Positions 33,418 through 64,000 of a stretch of DNA of 64,000 nucleotides are shown one piece after another (within the stretch, counting starts at the first letter, position 1; each line of letters opens with the position of its first letter). Location of the stretch: contig JAQMWT010000314.1 of NCBI GenBank assembly GCA_029834535.1, positions 248,001 through 312,000 of the forward strand, read 5' to 3'. The DNA is from Chrysophaeum taylorii. Its lineage: Eukaryota; Sar; Pelagophyceae; Pelagomonadales; Pelagomonadaceae. The notes beneath the pieces are model-generated. The model saw nothing but the letters and a program-made list of their open reading frames with translations, had not been told where the DNA came from and made no database searches. The position numbers were made by a program, and so were the translations under genes.

Positions 33418-34869
33418 TCAAGGCGCTTGTGCTACTATGCGGCGGCGGCGGCGCAGGGCCTTGATCTTGTGCTTGAGGTCGGCCGTCGTTTTCAAAGAAG
33501 GAGGGGCGGCATCGTCGTGGTCGTCGTTCGTATCGCAGGGAGGAAGCGTAGTTGCGGGAGCGTGTCGACGAGCCCTTTTAATGTTGTGGTTGGGTCGGAG
33601 ATCCTCCCAGGGACGTTTGATGGCGGCCGTGGCAATCGCTTTGGAGACGGGGTTGAGAAGGCGGAGGACGTCGTCCTCTTGGACGTCGTCGCAGAGGTCG
33701 AGGGTGGTCTGCACGCGGGCCTCGATCGCCTTGACAAGATCGAGGTCGTGCTGGGTGACCAGGGTGACCGCCCTGCCAGGTCGACCCGCGCGACCCGTGC
33801 GGCCAACGCGATGGACGTAATCATCCGGGTCCCTCGGGACGTCAAAGTTGACGACGAGGTCGACGCGGGGAATGTCGAGGCCTCTGGAAGCGACGTCGGT
33901 GCACACAATGACGCTCGCTCGATGCGACTTGAACTTGCCGAGGCTCGCGTTGCGGCGGCGCTGGCCCAACTTGGAGTGAAGGCAGATCGCGGGAACCTTG
34001 AGCTCGGCCAGGAGAGCGTCCAGCTCGTGACACCGACGACACGTCTGGACGAAAATCATGGCGCTCCGGTTGTTGCGGACGTCCAGAACTTTCAAGAGCT
34101 GCACGAAGTAGGAGACCTTGACGCGCGCCGGCATAAATAGGTACTGTTGGCACAGCTTGGCCGGGACGGCCGCCGGCGCGGAGAGGTCGACGCGGACGAG
34201 CGGACGTTCTCTAATATCCACCAACCGGTCCAGGCGCTCGGTCGATGTCGCCGAGAAGAAGAGCGTCTGATGTGGGGTCCGCTCGATGGCCTTGAGCGTG
34301 GCGAGGATGGTGCCGAGGTCCTCAGAAAACGACGGCGATACCAGGCGATCTGCCTCGTCGAGCACGAGCGTGCGAAGACGCGAGAACTGTCGTTCGAGCT
34401 GCCGGAGGTGGTCGACCAGTCGACCCGGCGTCGCAACGATTATGTGGGGCCGCCGCTCGAGGTCGAGGGCTTGCTGCGTCGCATCGACGCCTCCGACGAT
34501 CGTCGCCACTCGCACCTTCTGTCGCGCGCCAAATGCCTCGAACTGCTCTGCTGTTTGCGCCGCCAGCTCGCGCGCGGGGGACAGCACTAGACCGAAAACT
34601 CCGTACGGCTCCTTGAACAGCATCTGGAGCATCGGGAGCGCGAAGGCTGCCGTCTTTCCGGAACCTGTCTCGGCGAGCCCAAGCACGTCTTCGCGCGCGA
34701 GAATGCGGGGGATGCACGCCCGCTGGATCGCCGTCGGCTCCTTGAGCCCCATCGTGCGGCACGCTTCCTGCACCCACGCCACGAGCCCCACCTCCGCGAA
34801 TCCATCTTTCTCCGACTCCGATTCTGGGGGCGGCAAGACCCGCCGCGAAGCGGAAGAAGAAGCCCACAT
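33418..34869 (-). CDS. DDX49: DEAD-box RNA helicase DDX49/Dbp8
   Basis: The 483-aa protein carries all DEAD-box motifs in order: the Q motif (EPTAIQRACIPRIL), Walker A AETGSGKT near residue 66, PARELA, TPGRLVDHL, DEADRL near 170, FSATS, then in the second RecA domain MIFVQTCRR, HSKLGQ, VCTDVASRGLDIP and HRVGRTGRAG. The best fit is the Dbp8/DDX49 subfamily, which acts in the nucleolus in early 18S rRNA maturation within the small-subunit processome. The C-terminal 90 residues are basic (RRRRR), fitting nucleolar targeting. A TAAGGGTTATTAATTAA element lies immediately upstream on its strand. No introns. Confidence 0.93.
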   Translation of the reverse strand: MWASSSASRRVLPPPESESEKDGFAEVGLVAWVQEACRTMGLKEPTAIQRACIPRILAREDVLGLAETGSGKTAAFALPMLQMLFKEPYGVFGLVLSPARELAAQTAEQFEAFGARQKVRVATIVGGVDATQQALDLERRPHIIVATPGRLVDHLRQLERQFSRLRTLVLDEADRLVSPSFSEDLGTILATLKAIERTPHQTLFFSATSTERLDRLVDIRERPLVRVDLSAPAAVPAKLCQQYLFMPARVKVSYFVQLLKVLDVRNNRSAMIFVQTCRRCHELDALLAELKVPAICLHSKLGQRRRNASLGKFKSHRASVIVCTDVASRGLDIPRVDLVVNFDVPRDPDDYVHRVGRTGRAGRPGRAVTLVTQHDLDLVKAIEARVQTTLDLCDDVQEDDVLRLLNPVSKAIATAAIKRPWEDLRPNHNIKRARRHAPATTLPPCDTNDDHDDAAPPSLKTTADLKHKIKALRRRRRIVAQAP

Positions 34870-34969: not shown

Positions 34970-37900
34970 TTAGCAGTCAGAGTCGACCTTTAAAGACAGC
35001 CGGGGTCGGGAGGACAGCCAGCCCCCGCAGGGGTCACTACCGCCGCACGCGATCCCCGCCCCGCGGAGCTCCTCGAAGACGACGCGCTCCTCGAGAAGCC
35101 CGGCAGCTTCAAGACGCGCGCAGAACAATCGGAGTGCGAACGAATACACCTCCAAGTCCGCTGCGTTGTTGGTGCGAATCGCAGCATCCACCCCGTCGTC
35201 CCTCGACGCTACAAACTCGGCGTAGTCGGATTTGAGGTTCCGACGAAGCCCCGTCAGGTTGGACCAAAAGACGGCACGACTCGGGCGGACTCGATCAAAG
35301 GGCGGCGTCTCGTACGCGAGCATCGCCGTCGACGCTGGCGCTTCCGCGACGTGGACGACCGTGCTCCCGCATAATCGAGCTTTGGCGAGCGCCGCGTCGC
35401 CGCTGGCGTCGATCATCGGATCATACGGGTACGCGTTGCGCGCAAGCATTCGCGTCATCACGTTGCCTGACACAAACGTTTGAGAACGCGAAAGCAAGCA
35501 CGCTCACGGTATTCCGGCAATTCGACGTACGACGCGAAGCACGCCAGAGTGGCGCACGTGCCGGGCGGCCGGTGCGGCGGAGCGTAGAAGAACGCCGACG
35601 CCAATCGAGCTCGCGGCGAACGGACGCCGACGAGCGACGGAATAAAATCATCGCCTCGTTTTTCGCGAGGCTGGTGCCCGGCACATCCCAAAACGGCGGG
35701 ACACTCGAGACCTCGCCGCGGACAAGAGCCGGGTGGATCCCCCGGGTACACGCAGCACGGCTGACCCTCGGGCTTGCAACCGACAAGGCTACGGGCGACG
35801 AGAGAGAGCCACGACGACCCGGTTTTGGGTACTCGGGTCAGCCGGACGACGGTCGCGGCGGGCGCGCCGTCGACGGACGACCGACGGCGAACTTCGTACC
35901 GCGCGAGCGCGCGCTCGAACGCGTCTGGTGGTGGCGTCATCATCGTCGAACCACCGCAGGGCTCTTGCACCGACTTGGGTGGCGCGTAGCCGAGCGGGCA
36001 CAGCACCTCGCGTCCCCCCGCGGCCTCGAATACGGCGGACGCGAGATCCGCGTCGTATATTGATGCGTCTTCGCGCGTGCCGTGGCGCCGTCGTTTCGGG
36101 CTTACGCCCGCGTCGCGCCACCTTCGAATCGCCACGTCGACATTTTTTTCGCTTCCTCGAAACACGATTTGAAGGACGGACTCGAGCGCTTCGACCGGCG
36201 CGGCGACGAGATCCTCGTAGCGCACCGTGAGATTGACGGCGCTGCGCCAATGATCGACCAGAAGCCTCCAGCGGCGCGCCTCGACCACGGCAAACTCCGA
36301 CCAGGAAGAAGAAGAAGAAGAAGAAGAAGAAGAATGTACCTCGTTCTCGTTGCTGTACTCCCAGTAGCTGCGAATCGCGTCGAACGGATCGCGCACCAAT
36401 AATACCGCGGGAGCGCTGCCGTCTGCGGCGTTCGCTAATAGTTGCTGGCAGTCGCGCGGACCAAAGTCGATGATTGCCGGATGGTGTGTCTTAACGACGC
36501 TGACGAAGCTGCCCGAACAATAGCCTTCCCCAAGAAATCGTTCGTTCATGAGAAGTTCTGGATCCAAGTGGGTGGAGCCGGTTCGCGTTCCCGACGCCCG
36601 TTCGACGAGCTTCCGGAGCATCGTCGAGCCGCTTCGCGGAAACGACGCGACAAGGACAACCGTATGCTCCTCCAATAACACTGGAGCATAAGAAGATAAA
36701 TAATGGGCACACATCGAGTTAAATCGTCTCGACGCGGCAAGCTTCGTCACTCGGACGGGTCTTTGGAAATCGCGATTCGACGAAGAGAAGTTATACGTGC
36801 GTTCTCGCGTACAATGCAGGTGGAACGCCGCGATCTGAGCGCACGGATTCAGCATCGTGTATCCCGCCTCGACGAACGCGTCGATAAGTCGAAGATCCGA
36901 ACCGAGCACGTTTTGCTTGACGCCTCTCGCGGCGCTCACGATTGACTGCGGCACGGGCGAGACAAAAGCGAACGCGTCGTAACCGTGGATGTTCTCGGAC
37001 GAAGCACACAGATTCGCTGGCAAACCCAAAACGTGACCGCCGCCGCTGGCACGGACGCACGACGGTGCTGGCCGCCGCGTCATCGCAAATGCAATCCTGC
37101 TCTCGTCGCCGCGAAGCAGCTGAACGCAGCCAACCGTATCGTCAAAGTAGATGTCCGCGTGTGCGACGACTACGACTTTGCCGGTAAGGTAACGATTCGC
37201 ATATTCCAAAAAGTCGGCGTAGTCCGGCTGCCGCGCCCCAAAGGGGACCGCCACGAGCTTATCGGCGTTTCCGCGTGTTTCACTACCAAGGAGCGCCTCT
37301 CGCGGATCAACATCCTCTCCGAAGCTGTGGAGCGATGTTATGACATCAATAGCCAGGTTCGTGCGTTGCGCCGTTACGAGTTCGCCGTATCGGGCAGCGC
37401 TCGAGGCTTGGCGGTAGAGACCCGAAATCAAGTGCACTCCCTCGTCGTCCGTACGAGGAGCACGCGACAATAACAGATGCCGTTGCGCCGAAAGAAGGTC
37501 TTCGGCAAAGCGACGATTTTCTCCGTCGGCACTACCGCGTGCGAAGCACGAAGCGCCGGTTTCCAGACGGTCGGTGCGTAAGCACACGACGCCGACGTTG
37601 TTCCAAGCATCAGCAAGCCTTGAATCACACTCGAGCGCACGAACGTACAGGTCCTCGGCCGCGTATAGTTCGAGGCGCTCGTGTGCGAGCACGCCGAGCT
37701 TGTAGTATGCGGCTGCCGTCTCTGCCTCTCCGAGCACTCTTTTACACGTTGACAACGACGTGACGAGATGCTCTTCGACCGTTCTTCTGTTGACGCTGGC
37801 GTTCCGCAACCCACATCCATCTATGACTGCTCGATATGCTGCCGTGGCCGCAGCATTGTCCCCACGAACATAAGCCTCGTCTCCGCGCGTCAACAGCGAG

Positions 37901-40900
37901 TGCGCGTCGCAAGCATCCGACGAAACAACGCGAACGCGACGGCGCGCGAGCTCGCGCCGTAAAAATCGCGCAATATCACCAGCATCACTCCAGCCAGGGG
38001 CGAACACTAAAAGATGGTCCTCCTGGGTGTCGCGAGTCTGAATCGCCGCCAAATACTCCGACCACTCGGTAAAGACGAGCAATCGTTCCTCCTCCTCCTC
38101 CTCCGTACCTCGGACTTCATCATCATCCGAAAAACGACGACCAGGACAGACGACCACTACCCGAACTGGTCTCCGATCGCGTCCTAGAAGCGCAAGAGTC
38201 CGGTCAAGGAGGCCAAGCTTCTTGCCTCGACTAGCGCGTTGTTGAGCTTGGAACAAGTCGGATACAGCCGGCGCGTATCCTACGGCGACGGCACGCTCGA
38301 GAAGGTCGATCGCATCCGAAATACGATCCTCGTCATAACGAATCGCCGCGAGATTGCCCAACGCCCGCGAAAAGTTCGCTTCCAAGTCAAGAGACCGCTC
38401 GTAATACTCTGCAGCGCGAGCTGGCGCGCTGGCGTGTAGAAGAGCACCAAGCCCGAAGAGCGATTCGGCTCGTTCGCGCGAATCAAAGTCCTCCGTGGCA
38501 AAGTCGTACGCCGCATTGAACAACTCGAGCGCCGATATGTCGTCGCCAGCCTCGTGCCGCTCAACAGCCTCGGCGCGAAGAGACTTCGCGGTGTCCTCCT
38601 CCTCCTTATGTTGTTGAAGAGGAGGGTGCTGATTTACCTTTTTTGCCCATAATACGACTACGGCGTACGTCTCCATCGACGCATTGCGCTGCTGCTCCTG
38701 GAAATAAAGGGCAGGACCGGTCTGGACTTCTATGACGGCCAACCCCGCGGTCGCGGCGTGCGAACGCACTCGTCTCACCGTCGCGCCAAAACTCGCACAC
38801 AATAGCATTCCTTCGCTTCGCAACTCGACCGCTGCTCGCGCGATCGAGTCGCCGTTCGTAGCGGGCTGGATAGCAAGGTCCGCGTCGCTCTCGACACTCT
38901 CATCGCAATGCTCAAACCTGCGATATGTCTGGCTTTTTTGTTTTTTGAGGCATCGCAGTGGGACATCTGCATCGTTGAATATTCGCGCGACAGACTCGAG
39001 CCACTTCTCGAAGAACTCCAGGGCTGCAGTTCGGAGAGAGATTCGAATTGTGTGAGATGATTGCAAAAACAGGGGCCGATCGAGCTGTTCAGAATGCGAT
39101 GAGAGGTCCGGACCACCACCACCCGAGATCCGGTGATCGGGGGATTCGACTTCTTGAACAAACCACGAAATTGTTGCGTAGCTCGCGGCGGCGGCGTTGT
39201 TGTCAGAAACAAAATCAAGCCTGATCATGTCTTCGAGCTCGAAGAAGAAGAACGCAGTGCTCGTCGCTTGCACTCCAACACGTCGAGATACTTTTTTCCT
39301 ACCACCATCAGTGCCGACGATCGTGGTGATGATGTTGGCTCGCCGTATCTTTGCGGGCAACCGCAGTCGTATCCAGAGGTCAGTTGACAACTTGTCGTCG
39401 GTGAGTCGGTCGACCAGGACGCGAGCAGACGCGATCCGCCCACCCTCGCATACTCTAGCATTCTCGATCCGCGCCAACCGCGTCGCGAGCATCGAGCGCC
39501 CGATTTCGTCGACCGTCTTTGTGGAGAAGCCATCCAATTTTTCGAGCTGCGTCTCGAGCGTTTTAGTCTTGGTTGAGGTGACAAATTTCAAACAAGCCGT
39601 CTCGTTGCGTGCGACTCTCTCTTCAAGCAACGCGGTGCCCGCCGCGTCGTCTGTGATCACGACGCACCTGTCCAAGATCTCATCATTTTCGAACTCGCGG
39701 ATCGCCCAGTCGTTTCTGGATAAAAAAAATGCGGGCGGATCCCTGCAGCGTCCTCCAAATAAACGGCGACCGCATTCTTTTCGTGACGTCTCGTTCCGGC
39801 GGTGGTACGCACAGCTGACATCGTGGCCTTCGTCGAGGCGCTTGCACGCGAGTATTCGGTTGACTGGCGGCGGCGTATCGTGGCTGACAAAGAACGACCC
39901 AACGAGACCGCGGCTATTCAACGCGTTGGCCACTTCGAGTAGCGCACCCCACTTATCAAATACAAGGGCAAGAGAGGGTGGCGAGGGAATCACGCTTACG
40001 TCGAGACGACTGGCGACGTCGACCGCAGTAGCCCGTGCTTCGCATGCCACCGCCGCGTCGTCGTCAAACTGCTGGAAACGCTCGCTCAGACGGCGTGCTG
40101 CTGTTTCGTTCAGCAAATCTTTGATGCGACGCCCCGAAATTCTGAGCCGCTCTTGCCAATCCGCCGCAAGAAGCCAACCATCTCGGCGACGAAGCCACGA
40201 TTCCTTGGACGTGCCAGCTTTATCGACGCAGTTTGGGTGGAGAACGATCGGACCCGGTTCGCCGCCTTCGAGGCTCGCGAGAACGTCGAGCCAGCGATCG
40301 CAACCTCCAACCGGAAACAGCAACGAGTCGAGGATCGTTACAGCTGCGTCTCCATCCCGAAAACTCGCGTTGTTCGAGAACACGAAGCGTGCTGACCCGC
40401 CGCTACCGCGAACGACGCCGTTCGCATCCCAGCCGAGTTCGTCGAGCGCGCGGTTGGTGGCGACCTGGTCGTCGCCGACGATGCGAGTCAACTCGCGAAC
40501 ACGCTTTGCGAGATTGGCGCCGAACGCGGTGGTAGCGCGGTGCGCCGCAAAGCCGGCGCAGGCGGTAGGCGTTTGCCATTTGGTTGCGAGTTCCTGGGGA
40601 AACTCCCCAGCCCCAAAGCAATGATCGCACGAAGCCTCCAAAATCTTGGGTCGCGGGTCTCGCACGAACACCACATCGACATCAGAATGCAACACCTGCT
40701 TGCCCTGCAAGTTGCAGCCAACCAGGATGGTCTCCAAAGCGACTGCGCGCGCGTTCCAAAGCGCAGCGAGCTTGTCGGCGGCAGGCCCCTGCTGAGCGTC
40801 TTTCCACTCTCGCCACGCATCATGAGATAACGATTGCACCGGCACAACGTTCGCACCCGCGTCCCCCAAGATCGCCTCAAGCTCTGCGTCGAGGGACAGG

Positions 40901-41088
40901 AGCGCGTAGGGCAGTCCAAGTCTCTGGGCTGAAACCGCCCAATTTAGCGCCAACGGCGCGTACGACGCCGTCGAGAATGCGACGGCAATCAACTCTTCTC
41001 CGCTTGCGAGCGCCCGTAAGCTTCTGCACCCCGAGCCGGCGCTGGACGGCTGGGCGAAGAGGGCGAAGACAAGCAGCGACAGCAGCAT
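34970..41088 (-). CDS. Giant secreted multidomain glycosyltransferase/sulfotransferase, 2025 aa
   Basis: Two exons, 35508-41088 and 34970-35466, are joined across a 41-nt intron (GTGAGC...TGTGTCAG); the join restores ELPEYRNVMTRMLARN, typical of sulfotransferase C-termini. Domains in order: signal peptide (1-17); GT77-like nucleotide-sugar transferase (about 25-330) with DxD-type motif HSDVDVVFVRDP near 137; a NodB/deacetylase-like segment (about 370-430; ALVFDKW, GSFFVSHD, GHDVSCAYH) lacking several metal ligands; a beta-rich linker; TPRs (about 865-930 and 1105-1180); a second glycosyltransferase-like domain with VVVVAHADIYFDD near 1302; sulfotransferase 1 with the PAPS loop SFPRSGSTML near 1477 and VRDPFDAIRSYW near 1565; sulfotransferase 2 with RVPKTGSSW near 1753. 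Inferred role: synthesis and sulfation of a Golgi-made polysaccharide. It diverges from the sulfatase fusion gene. Confidence 0.85.
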
Positions 41089-41158
41089 TCGCGTCAGGGT
41101 AAGCCTTCATTCGCTAAGGCCGTCGCTCAAGTACTGGTGTGACGACAGATGAATAATT
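41089..41158. promoter_or_regulatory. 70-bp bidirectional promoter between the two sulfation genes
   Basis: The two start codons of the divergent giant genes are separated by only 70 bp. CAGGGTAAGC lies at about 41094-41103. There is no TATA box at a usual distance on either strand. Such a short space implies shared control of both genes; this is inference. Confidence 0.5.
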
Positions 41159-44100
41159 ATGCGAACAACAGTCTTCGCAACCATCGCGACGCTATTCTTG
41201 CGCGCTGCAAGTGGTCCTACACCCCCTCGCGGAATCCTCGTCGTCACTGCAGAAGATCTGGGCTTGGCCGATGATGTGAGCCATGACAATAATGTGACGA
41301 CGCCAAACCTGGCGCGGCTAGCTGCAGAAGGAGTGTCGCTCGCCGCATTCTACCAAGAACCGGCGTGCGTTCCGGCGCGTACCGCTCTGCTGACGGGTCT
41401 GGCGCCCGCGCGACTTTTGGGAAAGAAATGTGCGATTATTTCGAGACGGTTGGTCACCCTCCCTGCTCTGCTAAACTTGCACGGGTATTCGACGCGACGC
41501 GTCGGAGTCCTACGGCTGGCGGAGGTCGAAGGGCGCCATACCGCCGGTGACTGCATCCCAGGTTGGTCATTCGAGGCTACGTACGACAGCTACGTCGGTT
41601 TGGACTCCGAACCCAGGGTGTTTCTTAATTTCGACTTTGAAGGCAACGAAGGCTCTGCCTCGATTCGCGAGCTGGCTGCCACCGGAAAATGGTTTGTCTC
41701 GGTCCATTTCCGCACCCATCTGACGCTCGAGGCGCTTCCTGCGACCCGACGAACAAAAAAACCGAGATCGTCGCGACGCGAAATGGTTATCGAGAATCTA
41801 GACGAGAATCTCGGCAAGCTGTTAGGCGAGATTGATGATTTTACGCTTTGCTTCTTTCTGTCGGACAACGGATCAGAAGGTGCTCGAACGTCTCCCGCCC
41901 TGTCTAGCAACAGAGAGCATGGGGTGGCTGCCATTTCGCGAGCACCAGCATTCATCAGGTGGCCTGCAGGCGGCGTGCTGGGTGGTGGCGTCGTTCGACG
42001 AGTCGCGTCGATTCGCGACGTTTTTCCAACGGTGGCCGAGGCGATCGGGATGCCAATCGACGGTCTCCTGCTAGGCCACCATCTCGACGGCATCTCGTTT
42101 CTGGATGCCACGCGAGGCTATAACACCACCACCGACTTGACGACGAGGACTCTTGTATGGCAAAGCGATTTATCTTGGTCGGGGTGCTGCGGCGACAAAG
42201 ACGACGCCGCGCGTCGACGGAAGCGACGTCGTGGTGCCGTGCAAGAGGGCAGTCGATGGCGGGCGTACCTGAACGCAAGAATGCGGATCGTTGAGCTCTT
42301 CGACATCGAAACAGATCCAAGGGAGCAAGAGAACGTCCTTCTCTCGTCCGATATCCAGCGGCGGGCCGTCGTTTTACGGCTGCGAGCAGCCGTCGAGCGC
42401 GAATTGTTGTTGTCAAAGCCAGTCCTTTCTTGGAATTTATCGAGTGCAGCAGCATCATCAGACATACATCAATGTGAATTCGATCCCCACAATATGCTCT
42501 TGTTTGCCGACAAAAAAAAAGCTGGAGGAGGCCGCCGCCTAATGGTGCGCTTCACGTTTGAGTTGGACGCGGCCACGCGATGGCACGCGCGGGGTATCAA
42601 ACACGCCGAAGCCGGGCGCTACGACTTGGCAATCGGTTCGATGTCTCGTGCTCTCAGACTTCTTGCTTCTCCTGAGGATAAAGGGAGCATGCGACTAGCA
42701 GCCCAATGTCACTTTGTTCTCGGGTGGGTTCATCAGCTGCGCCAAGAGTGGGCTGGAGCTCGTCGATACTACGAGCACGCCGTCGCGGCCGACGAAACCT
42801 TCGTCGACGCCCGCACAAATCTCGGCGTAGTCCTCGATGCATTAGGAGCCCCATCAATGGCTCTGCGTATTATGAAAAGCGCTTTTGACCTGGCCGACTC
42901 AAGCACTCCGAGGGACGAGGCAAAGCGCGCGAGTCTACTGCGCAACGTCCAAATCCTCGAGGGCCGAACGATGGTCGTTGATGCGCAAGAAGAAGCGAGA
43001 TTCTCCAAAGTGCAATCAACGTACGGTTGTCAACCCCTGCCAGGCGACCCATCGCTCCGTATGCTCCCAACGATTCTCGTGGCCTCGGCCCCGAAGACGG
43101 GGTCTACGAGCCTCGTGGCCGATCTGCTGGCGCATCCCCAGATCGTCGGAGCCACGTGCAAGGAAACACGCTTCTGGCCGATCGACCACCGCGAGAATGC
43201 GTCTTTCGCCTTGTTGAGGTATCGCGCTCTCTTTCCCACCCGAGCGGACGCCGACGTCCAGGGTTGGAGAGCTGGAGTTGACGGCGGGTTGTACGGGCGT
43301 TGGCGGTCGATTCGAGGCGGTGCGCCCGCACAGGTGGCTGCCCTGATGCCAAAGGTAACTCGCGTCGTCGGTGTTTTGCGTGATCCTGTGGCCCGCTTCA
43401 TTTCTGTGTGGGTCGGTGCCGTCGCGCGCGACGATCTCGAGGCGACTTGTGGAAAGTTCTACGACGCGGCCCTCGATGCCGTCGCCGAATGTCGCGGGAT
43501 GCTGGCGTGCGAGCGCGAACGCGAAGCTGCGCCGCTCGCTGACGGGATCTATGTTTCCACCATACGGCAGTGGAACGCCGCCCTCGGTCCCGAGCGCACG
43601 CTCTGGCTCCCGCACGGTGCCTTGCACGACGACGCTGACCGCGTTCTCCAGCTTGTCGCGCGGTTCGCCGGCGTCCAGCCGTACGGCCAAAATGACCACG
43701 ACAAAAGACCAAGCACCGTGGCGCCGATCGGCTCGAACAATCTCCGCGACTATCGTGATCCGGCGGCGTCTCGCTTCTTCCGAGCTGCGGTCGTCGGCGC
43801 TTCCGACGACGACGACGACGACGACGACGACACCTGGCGCTGCGACGAGCGACGGGTCGGTCGATTCTATCAGCCGTGGAACGCGCTCTTAGCTCCAGAG
43901 CTTCTTGCGCGCGACCGCGACTTGGTGGACTTGTGGCTCAGCGATCCTTGGTTCTGCGAGGCCGTCGCGGCACGCTCGACTCTCGAGAATCTCTGCCGAT
44001 CAACAAAAGAATCAACAAATCTCCTGCCGTGCAATCACACCGGCCCGGCGACTCTTCACCTTCTTCTTCACGAGTTTGGCGCTGTTCATATCCAATCGCT

Positions 44101-44326
44101 CGATCTCACCGAAGTCTCGTCGCTCCGGGATCTCGTATCCGTCGTTCGACCGCAGTTCGAGCGAACGTGTGGCCACGTTACCGGGATCACGGAGGGATTT
44201 GACCGCACACCGCCCGCCGTCGTCTGCTTGGCCGAGCTCGTGTCCAGTTTTGTGACGTATGTCGTCGATGCATGCTCCCCGTTCGGCGCGAGGAGTGCTC
44301 ATCCACTTGATCGTAGGGTGACCTAA
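41159..44326 (+). CDS. Sulfatase-TPR-sulfotransferase fusion protein, 1055 aa
   Basis: After a signal peptide (1-18) comes a type I sulfatase (about 20-400): GILVVTAEDLGLADD at the metal-binding start, the formylglycine signature CVPARTALLTG with Cys70 fitting CxPxR, and FFLSDNGSEG near 235. Cys70 must be converted to formylglycine by a sulfatase-modifying enzyme. Residues about 465-600 form TPR helices (HARGIKHAEAGRYDLAIGSM). Residues about 635-830 form a sulfotransferase like those acting on heparan sulfate: PAPS loop SAPKTGSTSLVAD near 641 and VLRDPVARFISVW near 741. An Asp run follows and the last 150 residues are unassigned. The protein would both remove and add sulfate groups, most likely on a glycan in the secretory pathway. 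It is divergent from, and clearly related in design to, the 2025-aa protein. Confidence 0.88.
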   Translation: MRTTVFATIATLFLRAASGPTPPRGILVVTAEDLGLADDVSHDNNVTTPNLARLAAEGVSLAAFYQEPACVPARTALLTGLAPARLLGKKCAIISRRLVTLPALLNLHGYSTRRVGVLRLAEVEGRHTAGDCIPGWSFEATYDSYVGLDSEPRVFLNFDFEGNEGSASIRELAATGKWFVSVHFRTHLTLEALPATRRTKKPRSSRREMVIENLDENLGKLLGEIDDFTLCFFLSDNGSEGARTSPALSSNREHGVAAISRAPAFIRWPAGGVLGGGVVRRVASIRDVFPTVAEAIGMPIDGLLLGHHLDGISFLDATRGYNTTTDLTTRTLVWQSDLSWSGCCGDKDDAARRRKRRRGAVQEGSRWRAYLNARMRIVELFDIETDPREQENVLLSSDIQRRAVVLRLRAAVERELLLSKPVLSWNLSSAAASSDIHQCEFDPHNMLLFADKKKAGGGRRLMVRFTFELDAATRWHARGIKHAEAGRYDLAIGSMSRALRLLASPEDKGSMRLAAQCHFVLGWVHQLRQEWAGARRYYEHAVAADETFVDARTNLGVVLDALGAPSMALRIMKSAFDLADSSTPRDEAKRASLLRNVQILEGRTMVVDAQEEARFSKVQSTYGCQPLPGDPSLRMLPTILVASAPKTGSTSLVADLLAHPQIVGATCKETRFWPIDHRENASFALLRYRALFPTRADADVQGWRAGVDGGLYGRWRSIRGGAPAQVAALMPKVTRVVGVLRDPVARFISVWVGAVARDDLEATCGKFYDAALDAVAECRGMLACEREREAAPLADGIYVSTIRQWNAALGPERTLWLPHGALHDDADRVLQLVARFAGVQPYGQNDHDKRPSTVAPIGSNNLRDYRDPAASRFFRAAVVGASDDDDDDDDDTWRCDERRVGRFYQPWNALLAPELLARDRDLVDLWLSDPWFCEAVAARSTLENLCRSTKESTNLLPCNHTGPATLHLLLHEFGAVHIQSLDLTEVSSLRDLVSVVRPQFERTCGHVTGITEGFDRTPPAVVCLAELVSSFVTYVVDACSPFGARSAHPLDRRVT

Positions 44327-58113: not shown

Positions 58114-58254
58114 ATGCGCCGCCGCCGCCGCCGCATCGTCGAGGAGGAGGAGGAGGAGGAGGAGGAGGAGGAGGAAAGGCCATTTCCCGACTGGCTGCGA
58201 CGCCTCGAGGAGGCAAAAAAGAAGAAGGGGCCGCCGGAATCATTCAAGGTCCCC

Positions 58255-58286
<32 letters not shown>

Positions 58287-61200
58287 GTCGAGGGTCGATG
58301 CGAAGAATGTCCGCCTATCTTGGAAGACTGCCGAGACGGTAGAAGAGGAAGCGCGGACGAGGGCGGACCGGAGGGACAAGAGCCGCCCCGAGGCCCCGCG
58401 GCCCTTTCCGTTCCCGATCCGACCCACCAAGGTCAGGGAGGGCACCGCGGTGGCCGACTACGCTTTGGAGCGCGGCACGCGCAAGAAGTTCTTGCCTCGC
58501 TTCGAAAAACAGGATAAAGAAGAAGAAGAAGAAGAAGAACCGCCGACCATCCTCAAGAAGAGCCGCGAGGACGAGTACAACGAGGAGGGCGACGAACTGG
58601 ATCGTCTTTTCAAAGAAGAGAACCTACTTCGGCTCGACGTCTCAAAACTTCCGGTCGAGTTGTTCGACTCGACCGAGTTCGAGGAGCGGGACCGGTCCCC
58701 GCACGAATGGCTCGAGAATCGCAACGATTTTGGCGAGGTCCTGGCTTTCGCGGCCTATTACGACACCCACGGCAAGGAACCGATCTGGCGCTGGCGCAAG
58801 TGCAAGGTACTGCGGTATTCGGACGACCAACGAAAGTTCGAGGTCAAACTCGGGGTCAAGACCAAGTGGGTCTCGAGGCTCAACCTCAGGTTTGCGGCCG
58901 AGGACGAGGACACTTGGGATAGGAGACGGACTGCCGCGCGAGAGAGGCGCGACGCCGTCAAGCAGCAACTACGCCTCGACTTTTTTGTCGACAAGCAGCC
59001 CGCGACTTCCGAGATACAGCAGTCGACGATCTGCGCCATCCACGCCCGTCTCCAGGATGGACGCTTGAAATTTCCTCCCGAACCAAACACGCCCGCGGCC
59101 GACAGGCTTCGCGCGCTCACGAACGAGGCCGTCCGGGGCTACGAGAGGGCGATGAAGCGCGCGATCGTCAAACACGGGCACGCCGTCGACCAAAATTTTC
59201 GCGACGAATTCCAACGCCTCAAACTCCCCGCGCAAGCCGTCGCGCCACCGACACCCGCGCCCAGGCGCGCCAAAATCACGCTCCCGGCCCACCCCTACGC
59301 GGAGCGACGCGCCGTCGTCGCGCAGGCCCACTTCTCGTCGAACAAGGAGGTCTTGAACACCTTCGCGTGGCTCAATGCGGCCTGGGAAAACGTCGTCCAG
59401 CGCGCGCGATTCGTCAGGGTCCCGCCGCAATCAGACTCGGTTTTTGAACCCCCACCCCAGAACGCGCCTCCTCTCTCTACTACCAAAAGAGCCGCTGCTA
59501 TCCTCCAACAGGAGACCGAGGGCCTACCGTTCGCACTTCCGTGCGACATGGCCGACTTTGTCGCCGCGCAGGAAAAGCACTGCGAGGCCTACGCCTCCGC
59601 CTTGAGGAACGAGTGGCGGACGGCCTTTGCCGAGCAAATCGTCGACAACGTCCAAGATGTCTTCGACTTTTTCCAGTCAAATCACGCCGCCTTCGAGGCA
59701 TCCACGCTCCGCAGGCTTCTCCGCCATTTCGAGCTCCGTATGACCGAACAGCTCCGGTGGAGCGTCCGCGCGTCGCTCGACGCGTGGCTCGGCTTCATCA
59801 AGCGCTTCACGAGCACCGAAGAAGAAGAACAAGAAGAAGCCAGAAAAAAACACGCGACGCCATTGTTTAATGTGAAACTCGTCGTGGCCACAGCAGACGC
59901 CTCCTCCTCCTCCTCCTCCTCCTCCTCGGTATCATCTCCGGCCTCGGTGGTGAAAATCGAGCCGTCGTACGACGAGGTTGAAGATGCGCTCATAGCTCGC
60001 GTCGACCAGCCCGTCGCCGCGGTGAGCGAGATTGCGTGCGTGGACGTCGAGCTCATGTCGCTCCTGCACCTCCCCAAGAGGCCATTGCTCCCCCTAGACG
60101 ATGCCGCCGCCAAGACCGGCGACAAACCTTTGGTCGCCGGGACAGCCGCCAAAGTCGACGAAGCGCGCGAGGAGATCCGGCGCCAATTGCGGGTCGCGTT
60201 CGAGCGACCGCGGGCACTCGCCGAAAAGTTTGGAGCGTTTGCGTGGATTGCCGACGTCGACACGGCCGCGCACGTTCGGAGTTTTGTGAGGCGCGACCCC
60301 CCCCCCGAGCTCGACGAGTACGTCGACGAAGTACGTCGATTCCACCAAGCCGCGAACGCGATCGGGAGTTTGAGCGAAGACGACGAACGGCTGGGTCTGT
60401 GCGCCGTCGACACGACCAAGGCAAAAGCTGCGCTGGTCCACAAGGCGCGCGAGGTGCTGCTGGCGCTGTTGCAGCACGTCGTTTTCGAGGCGCGCGCCGA
60501 GAACGAGGCAACCATCGAGCGGTACGAGCAAATCCTCGCGAGACTCGCCGAGCAACCGACGAACGAGGCGCAGCTCGCAGCGCTCAAGGTATTCATCGCC
60601 GACTCCAAAAAGGAGGTGCTGCGAATGGTCGACAGCGTTCAGGAAATGCACGCCCGCCTCGCTCGATTCGACGAGTTTATGATCCCCATGTCCAAGGAGG
60701 ACACGTTTCTCGCGTGGTCGACGATGGAGTACCCGAAGCGCGTCGACGACGCCTCGAACGACTGCGAGACGCGCATCGAGATGGACAAGGTCCGCATGAT
60801 GGACAAGCTCGCGATGGAAAAGACTTCGTTCGACCAAAAAATCCAACAATTCGAAGTTGATGTGAAAAGGGTAAAAGCATACGCCGACTACGCCAACGAG
60901 CAATCGTACGTCGAGGAGATCAACCGGCTGCAGGACGCGATCACCGAGGCGAAACACACGGCACAGGATTTCAACGAACGCGAACAAGTCTTCGGGTTTC
61001 CGCCGACCGAATACGCCGAATTAAACGCGATCGAGACCGAATTGAACCCCTTCTGGGACCTCTGGAACATGATCAGCGACTTTCATACGAATCGGCACGA
61101 GTGGCTCCACGGCGCTTTTTTGGATTTGCAAGGCGCGAAGATCCAGCGCGAGGTCGAGGTCTGGTGGAAGCAGAGCTACAAGCTCAAGGCGCAGCTCGAG

Positions 61201-64000
61201 GCACAGACGCCGGGCGCCGCCGCTTGTGCGGCCAAGCTGCGCGAGGAGACGACCGAGTTCAAAACCAACCTCCCGCTCATCCAGGCGCTCGCGTCGCCGG
61301 CGCTCAAGGAACGCCACTGGGCAAAACTATCCGACAAGATCGGCCACCGCCTCTCGCCCTTCGACGAGAGCGGGGTCGAACTCACGCTCCAAGGCCTCCT
61401 CGACATGAACACGGGTGCCTACATCGAGGAGATCCAGGAGGTCTGCGTCGCCGCCGAAAAAGAGTACAAGCTCGAACGCGACCTCCAGGCGATGAAGGAC
61501 GAGTGGGCGGTCGTCCAGTACGACGTCAAACCGTACAAGGAAACGGGCACGTGCATCGTCGGCGGTATCGACGACATCATCACCCTCCTCGACGACCACA
61601 TCGTCAAAACACAAACCATGTGCGGCTCCATGTTTATCAAAGCGATCGAAGAAGACGCCAAGGCCTGGGAGCAGCAGCTCAAGTACGGCCAAGCCCTCAT
61701 CGACGAGTGGATAGCGTGCCAGCGCGTATGGATGTACCTCGAGCCAATATTCTCGTCGGAAGATATCATGCGCCAGCTCCCGACAGAGGCCCGCCGCTTC
61801 AACGACGTCGACAAGCTTTGGCGCGCGACGATGAAGGGCACCGAAGAAGACCCCATCTTCATCGCCCAGGCAGACCCCGCGAAAAAGCTCAAGAAAAAGT
61901 TTCTCGAGGCGAACGAGAAGCTCGACAAGATTCAAAAAGGCCTCGCCGACTACCTCGAGGTCAAGCGCCTCTGCTTCCCGAGGTTCTTCTTTCTCGCCGA
62001 CGAGCAGATGTGAGGCCGCGCATTATCCTACGAGTTGCGCGAGAACCCACCTTTTTTTCAAAACAGGCTCGAGATCTTGTCGCAGACGAAGGAGCCGCGG
62101 GCCGTGCAGCCGCACCTTGGCAAAGCGTTCGAAGGTGTGTGAAGATTTTATTACGAAAAAACACCGCTGTTTCTTCTGCTTATTATTATTGTTATTCGTG
62201 TTCGCTATGTTGCGCAGGTCTTACTCGAGTGAAGTTCGAGACGGACTTGAAGATCACCGAGATGATCAGCAGCGAGGGCGAGCGGGTGGCGCTCAACTCC
62301 CCCGTCGATCCAGAGTCGCCCGCCAACAAAGGTACTACGTCTCATGCCAGCACGGCGCCGTCGACACTTTGCGTATTAAATAGGCGCCGTCGAGCGATGG
62401 TTGCTCCAGCTCGAGGAGCTTCAGTGGCAGTCGGTTCGCAAGCAGGTCGAGCTCTCGCTCGCCGAGTACCCCAAGCTCGAACGGGCAAAGTGGACGCTTA
62501 ACTGGCCGGCTCAGGCCGTCCTCGCGACGTCGCAGATGTTCTGGACGCAGGACGTCAACACGGTCATCGCCGAAGCAGGGAGCGCCGGCCTCGAAAAGTT
62601 TGTCCTCAAGCTCAACGACCAGCTGACCGAAATTGTCATGCTCGTCCGCGGCAAGCTCACAAAACTCCAGCGCAAGACGCTTTCGGCGCTAGTCGTGATG
62701 GACGTTCACGCTCGCGACACCATCGCGGCGATGGCGACAGCAAAGGTCGAGAAGACCACCGATTTCGACTGGGTCTCGCAGCTGCGCTATTATTGGGAGC
62801 CCTCGTGGAAGGATGGCCAGGCCGTCAAAAAGGGTGACAAAACGGTGGTCGCTCGCATCGTCAATGCCAAATGCCTCTACGGCTACGAGTACCTCGGCAA
62901 CTCCATGCGGCTTGTCATCACGCCGCTTACTGACAGATGTTACCGTACGATGATCAGTGCGATCGACCTTCTGTATGGTGGCGCACCCGAGGGTCCGGCG
63001 GGAACTGGCAAAACCGAGACCGTCAAGGATCTGTCCAAGGCCATGGCGATCCAATGCGTCGTCTTTAACTGTGAGAGTGTTTGGTGGGGCCTCCGATTTG
63101 ACCATCAGTCCGCAGGCTCGGACGGTCTCGACTACAAGGCAATGGCCAAGTTCTTCAAGGGCCTCGCCGGCTGCGGATCGTGGTGTTGCTTTGACGAGTG
63201 AGTTGCTCTCGTCGCGATGCTCGCTCAAATAACTGGCTTTAGGTTCAACCGGATCAACGTCGAGGTATTGTCGGTGATCGCCCAGCAAATCCTGACGATC
63301 AACAAGGGCAAAGCCGCGGGTGTGGAGAAGTTCAACTTCGAAGGGACATACATGAAGCTCAACCCAAATGCCAACCCGTTCATTACGATGAATCCCGGCT
63401 ACGCCGGTCGCGCCGAGCTCCCAGACAATCTCAAGGCACTCTTCAGGCCGTGCGCGATGATGGTCCCCGACTACGCGCTCATTGGCGAGATCCGATTATA
63501 CTCGTTCGGTTTCGAGGATGCACGAAGAAATGCCCAGAAGCTCGTCCGCACGCTCCAGCTCTGCTCCGAGCAGCTCTCGAGCCAACGACACTACGATTAC
63601 GGCATGCGCGCCGTGAACTCGATCCTTGTCGCTGCGGGCAACCTCCGGCTCAAAGTCGGCGACAATCCACTATGGAGCGAGTCGAAGATCGTGCTTCGGA
63701 GCGTGATGGACGTTAACCTGCCCAAGTTCACCGTCGACGACCTCCCACTGTTTCGAGGGATCACGTCCGACCTCTTTCCGGGGGTCGAGCTGCCGACGGC
63801 GGACCACGGTGCGCTCGTCCCAACTATCGACGAAGTGTGCTGGAGCGGCGTCGGGGTCGCCCCTGACAGGAGCTTCAAGCTCGAGCCCGTCAACTCGTTC
63901 ACCCTCAAAATCGTTCAGCTCTATGAGATGGTCTTGGTACGCCACGGCGTCATGGTCGTCGGCCAGACCCTCGCCGGTAAGACGGCGGCCATCCACACAC
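58114..64000 (+). CDS. Axonemal (inner-arm type) dynein heavy chain, 5' part, runs off the window
   Basis: Six exons are visible: 58114-62009, 62067-62134, 62218-62331, 62384-63070, 63116-63197 and 63243 onward. Introns are 57, 83, 52, 45 and 45 nt, all GT-AG, and each join restores family sequence, for example ADEQM+[10 protein letters not shown] and FNC+SDGLDYK. More than 1860 residues are present. The first ~700 residues are the tail, with Glu/Arg and Asn runs at the start. From about 960 comes the DHC_N2 linker. AAA1 has the P-loop [13 protein letters not shown] and the Walker B region CCFDEFNRI split by an intron, then [20 protein letters not shown]. The AAA2 P-loop ([10 protein letters not shown]) is just reached at the window end. 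Closest by pattern are single-headed inner-arm chains (DNAH1/3/7/12 group). The gene implies a motile flagellum. Confidence 0.94.

What the first reader, a model, noticed from the sequence alone, without database searches (positions are those of the whole stretch)
34970..44326. Head-to-head pair of giant sulfated-glycan enzymes sharing a 70-bp promoter
The sequence shows two divergent genes, 2025 aa and 1055 aa, each with a signal peptide, TPR segments and PAPS-type sulfotransferase domains. One adds two glycosyltransferase-like domains and a second sulfotransferase. The other adds a sulfatase. From family knowledge, glycosyltransferase, sulfotransferase and sulfatase together are what is needed to build and edit a sulfated polysaccharide. 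Having all these activities in two fused, co-regulated proteins would be an unusual, possibly undescribed, glycan sulfation module in a microalga. That they work on one glycan is inference.
Basis: partly seen in the sequence, partly recalled or inferred. Interest (0 to 1): 0.88.

Follow-up and report, generated by a model that had tools for sequence, protein, structure and literature searches.

The report
Fused algal glycan-sulfation enzyme pair
Two neighbouring genes of a slime-forming marine microalga each code for a large chained enzyme that looks built to make and sulfate sugar polymers; one is shared with a brown-tide alga, while the other carries a sulfate-removing part that has probably lost its activity.

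Summary
The window is very probably Chrysophaeum taylorii (Pelagophyceae), a mucilage-forming alga. P1 (34970-41088, minus strand) is 2025 aa after one 41-nt intron: PF03407 glycosyltransferase, two TPR blocks, a GT-A-like domain, a PAPS sulfotransferase (ST1) and a motif-only second one (ST2). P3 (41159-44326, plus) is 1055 aa: sulfatase, TPR, sulfotransferase. Start codons lie 70 bp apart.

P1's core (GT, TPR, GT, ST1) is conserved in Aureococcus anophagefferens and two unnamed proteins; all three lack ST2. No ortholog of P3 was found in a limited search. P3's sulfatase keeps CxPxR and SDNG but has D->E, K->V and K->R at sites kept by 14 of 14 aligned sulfatases of the genome, and Arg at a site that varies (9 His, 4 Asn, 1 Asp), so desulfation is doubtful. 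Another sulfatase-sulfotransferase fusion (L038) lost a Lys and two His that two paralogs keep.

Pfam shows at least five further single-frame fusions of glycosyltransferase, sulfotransferase or sulfatase domains, so the pair is part of a trend. Most likely P1 builds and sulfates a Golgi glycan, and P3 is a sulfotransferase with a non-hydrolytic, substrate-binding sulfatase module. Co-regulation is untested.

The parts
34970..41088 (-). P1 gene, 2025 aa spliced (1876-aa ORF plus last exon): GT1 - middle region - TPR - TPR - GT2 - ST1 - ST2
35467..35507 (-). 41-nt intron (GTGAGC...TGTCAG) in P1; same junction in the deposited model P0015
40129..41016 (-). GT1 domain (about aa 25-320), PF03407-type, DVD motif LHSDVDV also in the three relatives
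38629..40101 (-). middle region (about aa 330-820), no family match, poorly conserved (17-40% identity); about 92 aa of it are left out in P0015
38239..38601 (-). TPR block a (about aa 830-950)
37459..37821 (-). TPR block b (about aa 1090-1210)
36694..37443 (-). GT2 domain (about aa 1216-1465), GT-A-like, AHxDxYFD motif in P1 and three relatives, diverged paralogs at six fetched places of the genome
36019..36681 (-). ST1 PAPS sulfotransferase (about aa 1470-1690): PRSGST and VRDPFDAIRS motifs
34973..35871 (-). ST2, putative second sulfotransferase (about aa 1740-2025, across the intron): PKTGSS and VRSPRARLAS; absent from three relatives
41089..41158 (.). 70-bp gap between the two divergent ATGs (possible bidirectional promoter; inferred)
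41159..44326 (+). P3 gene, 1055 aa, no intron needed: sulfatase - TPR - sulfotransferase
41231..42448 (+). P3 sulfatase domain (about aa 25-430): CVPAR (C70) and SDNG (D236) kept; E32, V117 and R252 replace invariant D, K and K; R119 at a variable His/Asn/Asp site
42590..42958 (+). P3 TPR block (about aa 478-600)
43052..43798 (+). P3 sulfotransferase (about aa 632-880): PKTGST and LRDPVARFIS; NDST-like

Best explanation
P1 is probably a secretory-pathway, single-chain glycan assembly enzyme: two GT-A-type glycosyltransferase domains extend or cap a sugar chain, TPR blocks hold the protein together or in oligomers, and the attached PAPS sulfotransferase(s) sulfate the product. This core is shared among pelagophytes. 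P3 is a sulfotransferase known only from this alga so far, whose N-terminal sulfatase domain has probably lost hydrolysis and serves to hold a sulfated glycan, so that the C-terminal sulfotransferase acts on already sulfated chains. Shown by sequence: the fusions, motifs, substitutions and conservation. Inferred: location, substrate, loss of activity, the binding role and cooperation between P1 and P3.
Against: C70, R74 (the formylglycine motif) and SDNG are kept in P3, which a pure binding module would not need; altered but real hydrolysis is possible. K->R at R252 is conservative. A third sulfatase with a sulfotransferase-like tail, L043, keeps GKWH, so loss is not a rule (2 of 3). Not all sulfatases of the genome were fetched. 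No transcript, protein or glycan evidence. The GT2 fold rests on a low-confidence model; Foldseek alone gave no match at E <= 0.001 for it, and the top Foldseek row for the longer model is an isoprenoid synthase domain-containing protein.
Confidence: 0.45

Rival explanations
1. One reading: one co-regulated pair that builds, sulfates and desulfates a single polysaccharide, with a working sulfatase in P3.
For: Head-to-head start codons 70 bp apart; C70/R74 and SDNG kept; formylglycine-generating-enzyme family present in the genome (5 matches).
Against: Three substitutions at positions invariant in 14 of 14 other aligned sulfatases and a fourth at a variable site; no P3 relative found while P1 relatives were; no expression data.
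Confidence: 0.15
2. The neighbourhood is accidental: P1 is a functional pelagophyte enzyme and P3 is a fast-evolving or decaying fusion with no partnership with P1; its sulfatase substitutions are decay.
For: P3 was not found in the protein collection, although the same collection holds C. taylorii proteins; gene packing here is tight (a DEAD-box helicase ORF starts about 100 bp beyond the end of P1); secondary-metabolism genes of this alga show little clustering.
Against: P3 is open over 1055 codons with coding bias throughout and keeps both PAPS motifs and the Cys motif, which fits constraint better than decay.
Confidence: 0.25
3. P1 modifies a glycoprotein or theca protein rather than building a polysaccharide: GT1 belongs to PF03407, which includes plant enzymes adding sugars to wall proteins and pectin side chains (recalled), and the sulfotransferase sulfates that glycan or protein.
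For: PF03407 match in P1 and P0016 above cut-off and in paralog L053 at 66.6 bits; pelagophytes carry a Golgi-made perforated theca (PMC12168098, passages).
Against: The best structural rows of GT2 are polymer-making synthases, but these are distant and not decisive.
Confidence: 0.15

Closest known systems
Bifunctional heparan sulfate N-deacetylase/N-sulfotransferase (NDST)
   Same: Two activities on one glycan in one chain (recalled); P3's sulfotransferase is nearest to the NDST sulfotransferase among solved structures by sequence (1nst E 1.8e-4).
   Different: P3's partner domain is a sulfatase-family domain, not a deacetylase, with a TPR block between; P1 adds glycosyltransferases.
Chondroitin synthases (CHSY3-CHPF, bacterial K4CP)
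   Different: 6-12% identity in those rows; no sulfotransferase or TPR in those enzymes (recalled); P1's product is unknown.
TagF-like bacterial capsule polymerases with TPR domains (PMC5974469, passages)
   Same: Single-chain, multi-domain polymer makers; in Cps1B the TPR domain was shown to mediate oligomerisation.
   Different: They handle phosphate-containing polymers, not sulfates; bacterial; no homology to P1 was tested.
AURANDRAFT_61697 of Aureococcus anophagefferens (P0018) and unnamed P0016, P0017
   Same: Same order GT1 - middle - TPR - TPR - GT2 - ST1, 47-64% identical in the three enzyme domains.
   Different: No ST2; no P3 relative found.
Type I (formylglycine) sulfatases
   Same: P3 hits PF00884 at 59.5 bits; CxPxR and SDNG kept.
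   Different: Three invariant catalytic or metal-site positions changed; fused to TPR and a sulfotransferase.
Multi-domain sulfatases of Planctomycetes (PMC4807772, passages)
   Same: Sulfatase genes described there as fused to other domains by gene fusion.
   [quoted passage not shown] bacterial.

Membership tests
PAPS-dependent sulfotransferase (P1 ST1) | Pfam match and both PAPS-binding motifs | tested here: met
   PF13469 30.0 bits (cut-off 27) and PF00685 23.8 (cut-off 22); motifs kept in relatives, with a variant 3' motif RRPWDALAS in Aureococcus
PAPS-dependent sulfotransferase (P3) | Pfam match above cut-off | tested here: not met
   PF00685 15.0 and PF13469 13.9 bits, below cut-off; 17.9 and 17.1 when the region is scanned alone, still below
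PAPS-dependent sulfotransferase (P3) | Both PAPS motifs in order, and similarity to solved sulfotransferases | tested here: met
PAPS-dependent sulfotransferase (P1 ST2) | Family or structure match | tested here: inconclusive
   no Pfam match, only two ribosomal-protein rows at E > 0.4 in the PDB search; motifs present
Type I formylglycine sulfatase (P3) | PF00884 over cut-off and CxPxR motif | tested here: met
   59.5 bits; C70-V-P-A-R74
Type I formylglycine sulfatase (P3), catalytic competence | Full set of metal and catalytic residues (human arylsulfatase A numbering recalled: D29, D30, C69, R73, K123, H125, H229, D281, N282, K302) | tested here: not met
   E32 for D29, V117 for K123, R252 for K302 (each invariant in 14 of 14 others); R119 for H125 (9 His, 4 Asn, 1 Asp in the others); D30, C69, R73, D281, N282 kept; H229 could not be placed with certainty
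PF03407 glycosyltransferase (P1 GT1) | Pfam cut-off and DxD | tested here: met
   22.2 bits against 22 (P1), 24.7 (P0016), but 20.7 (P0017) and 13.1 (P0018) below cut-off; DVD in all
GT-A glycosyltransferase (P1 GT2) | GT-A fold with metal-binding Asp motif | tested here: inconclusive
Co-regulated divergent gene pair | Shared promoter, co-expression | not testable with these tools
   only the 70-bp gap is seen
Conserved P1-P3 linkage | Same neighbours in related genomes | not testable with these tools
   no relative genomes held for this assembly; P3 relatives not found

The most novel reading that the evidence does not exclude
Sulfotransferases of this alga have recruited dead sulfatase domains as readers of sulfation: a module that binds a sulfate ester without cutting it and hands the chain to a fused sulfate writer. 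It would have arisen at least twice (P3 and L038), next to a pelagophyte family of glycosyltransferase-TPR-glycosyltransferase-sulfotransferase enzymes.
Probability: 0.25. Interest if true: 0.78.

Novelty: new variant of a known kind. Interest (0 to 1): 0.52.

Why it matters
To my knowledge, enzymes that sulfate microalgal mucilage are hardly assigned. P1 gives a conserved pelagophyte candidate that reaches a brown-tide species, joining glycosyltransferase-type domains and sulfation in one chain. If sulfatase domains have twice become non-hydrolytic partners of sulfotransferases, that is a new way of making sulfation depend on existing sulfation, and it warns against counting PF00884 matches as desulfating enzymes.

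Tried and rejected
Structure prediction of P1 aa 1080-1876 with 4 sequences gave pLDDT 46.9; used only as weak support. The middle region of P1 was scanned against Pfam alone and through its Aureococcus counterpart, which looks by eye like a methyltransferase; no methyltransferase match. No structure was predicted for it or for P3; alignments A2 and A3 were made for it but not folded.

P3 relatives were sought twice in the large protein collection. One search found 13 proteins covering 9-37% of P3, all with sulfatase or phosphodiesterase Pfam domains and none with a sulfotransferase domain listed; (TPR plus sulfotransferase) found none. Both scored about 8000 word-sharing candidates, of 580-1846 aa by the tool's length rule, so a diverged or differently modelled relative can be missed.

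The L043 tail was considered a third sulfotransferase: motifs only, no Pfam or PDB match. L038's sulfotransferase is a Pfam match (28.4 bits) although my motif pattern does not find it.

Ten literature searches showed no description of a sulfatase-sulfotransferase or glycosyltransferase-TPR-sulfotransferase fusion in algae in the titles, abstract starts and passages seen. The algal sulfotransferase/sulfatase survey PMC4659905 (passages) has no occurrence of 'fusion', 'TPR' or 'Aureococcus'; the review PMC11625862 has none of the six terms sought. Only open-licence papers are searched.

Full report
WHAT IS THERE. The window lies in a 985,660-base contig of a 70.8-Mb, 697-contig assembly. The nearest protein to P1 is CTAYLR_000055 of Chrysophaeum taylorii (P0015), whose contig has the same length and whose sequence aligns to P1 without substitutions apart from two omitted stretches and a junction residue. 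The published C. taylorii genome has 71 Mb on 702 contigs (PMC10366177, passages). I therefore take the window to be C. taylorii; the identification is inference from these agreements.

P1 runs on the minus strand from 41088 to 34970. A 1876-aa ORF ends at a stop, but a 41-nt intron with GTGAGC and TGTCAG ends carries the frame on to 2025 aa. P0015 uses the same junction.

P3 runs on the plus strand from 41159 to 44326 without an intron. It is open over 1055 codons; the longest stop-free run in 200 base shuffles was 317 aa, and the coding frame scores best of six in all 6 segments of a codon-usage test trained on P1 and the neighbouring helicase. The start codons are 70 bp apart.

RELATIVES OF P1. 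One search returned 4 proteins: P0015, the unnamed P0016 (1480 aa) and P0017 (1452 aa), and Aureococcus anophagefferens AURANDRAFT_61697 (P0018, 1512 aa). Identity to P1 over GT1, GT2 and ST1 is 47-64%, over the middle region 17-40%. All three end before ST2. P1's core is thus a family shared by at least two pelagophytes, and ST2 an addition seen only in C. taylorii.

P3 AND ITS SULFATASE. The domain hits PF00884 at 59.5 bits and many solved sulfatases. It was aligned with 14 other distinct sulfatases of the genome (17 rows before merging pieces of the same place; picked among fetched loci by a CxPxR/DNG pattern). P3 keeps the CxPxR motif (C70, R74), D33 and SDNG (D236, N237). It has E32 where 14 of 14 have Asp, V117 where 14 of 14 have Lys, and R252 where 14 of 14 have Lys; R119 stands where the others have His (9), Asn (4) or Asp (1). 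A wider audit took 38 profile hits among 450 ORFs; recounted, these are 29 distinct places. One is an exon piece without the site; of the other 28, 26 keep the Lys of GKWH (one of them as GKLYH). The two that do not are P3 and L038. Not every sulfatase of the genome was fetched. L038 (contig C37) is a 987-aa frame with sulfatase (108.8 bits) and Sulfotransfer_3 (28.4 bits). Its paralogs L044 and L048 are 49% identical to it and keep Lys and both His, while L038 has Val, Gln and Ser. So two sulfatases fused to sulfotransferases have, apparently independently, lost catalytic residues. Roles of the residues are recalled from human arylsulfatase A.

The sulfotransferase of P3 is below the Pfam cut-offs but matches NDST (1nst, E 1.8e-4) over 205 residues and has both motifs. 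No protein related to P3 over more than a sulfatase-sized part was found, not even a C. taylorii entry, so the published gene set of 10,810 genes (PMC10366177 section 6) probably lacks it or models it outside the length range searched.

A GENOME-WIDE TREND. The genome gave 50 matching stretches for sulfatase, 28 for Sulfotransfer_3, 33 for Sulfotransfer_1 and 23 for Sulfotransfer_2; these are lower bounds that include exon pieces and overlap between families. Of the 12 long frames that I scanned for this (8, 4 new), Pfam shows fusions above cut-off in five: L038 (sulfatase + ST), L039 (two ST stretches + GT2), L042 (CAP59 mannosyltransferase + sulfatase), L056 and L057 (Fringe + ST). L043 (sulfatase + ST motifs), L045 (unassigned N-terminus + ST), L058 (ST plus a sugar-transferase-like start, judged by eye) and L055 (sub-cut-off GST match + ST) are weaker; L040, L041 and L044 showed sulfatase-type families only. 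Frames were chosen by length, so no rate can be given, and introns could hide gene boundaries. The genome has APS kinase (2 matches) and formylglycine-generating-enzyme-family proteins (5 matches).

MECHANISM. Most likely P1 acts in the Golgi: GT1 and GT2 add sugars, ST1 (and ST2) sulfate the product, TPRs organise the chain or oligomerise it as shown for Cps1B (PMC5974469, passages). P3's sulfotransferase acts on glycans held by a sulfatase-shaped module. The biological setting is the mucilage of C. taylorii; in other pelagophytes the matrix is Golgi-made and stains pink with toluidine blue (PMC12168098, passages), which fits an acidic, possibly sulfated matrix (inference). That P1 and P3 share a promoter or a glycan is not shown.

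VERDICT. Observation confirmed; interpretation partly supported. The elements are all of described kinds; their combination is new to me and was not seen in the searches named. The strongest lead is the repeated loss of sulfatase catalytic residues in sulfotransferase fusions, with n = 2 of 3.

Noticed in passing
L038:3910-6870 (contig C37): A second sulfatase-sulfotransferase fusion (987 aa) whose sulfatase lost a Lys and two His that paralogs L044 and L048 keep.
   Followed up: yes
L039:4748-8455 (contig C667): One 1236-aa frame with two Sulfotransfer_3 stretches followed by a family-2 glycosyltransferase.
   Followed up: partly
L056:1-2442 and L057:1039-3399: Two frames with a Fringe-like glycosyltransferase followed by a sulfotransferase.
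   Followed up: partly
L042:2714-5533: CAP59-type mannosyltransferase and sulfatase in one 940-aa frame.
   Followed up: partly
L055:1295-3199: A weak glutathione-S-transferase N-terminal match (17 bits, below cut-off) ahead of a strong Sulfotransfer_1 domain in one frame.
   Followed up: no
L040 and L041 (contig C362): Three related sulfatases within about 17 kb; two have long N-terminal extensions in frame, and one extension has a sub-cut-off YHYH match.
   Followed up: no
G000:C572:108430-108885: APS kinase match inside a 1124-aa open frame, perhaps a fused PAPS synthetase.
   Followed up: no
P0018 about aa 570-730: The Aureococcus relative has a stretch that looks by eye like a methyltransferase (LEVGGGD), lost or blurred in P1; Pfam gave no match.
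   Followed up: partly
window 58114-62013: Dynein heavy chain N-terminal region 2 in a 1299-aa ORF (345.5 bits).
   Followed up: no
window 33418-34869: Intact DEAD-box helicase ORF on the same strand as P1, starting about 100 bp beyond P1's end, showing tight gene packing.
   Followed up: no
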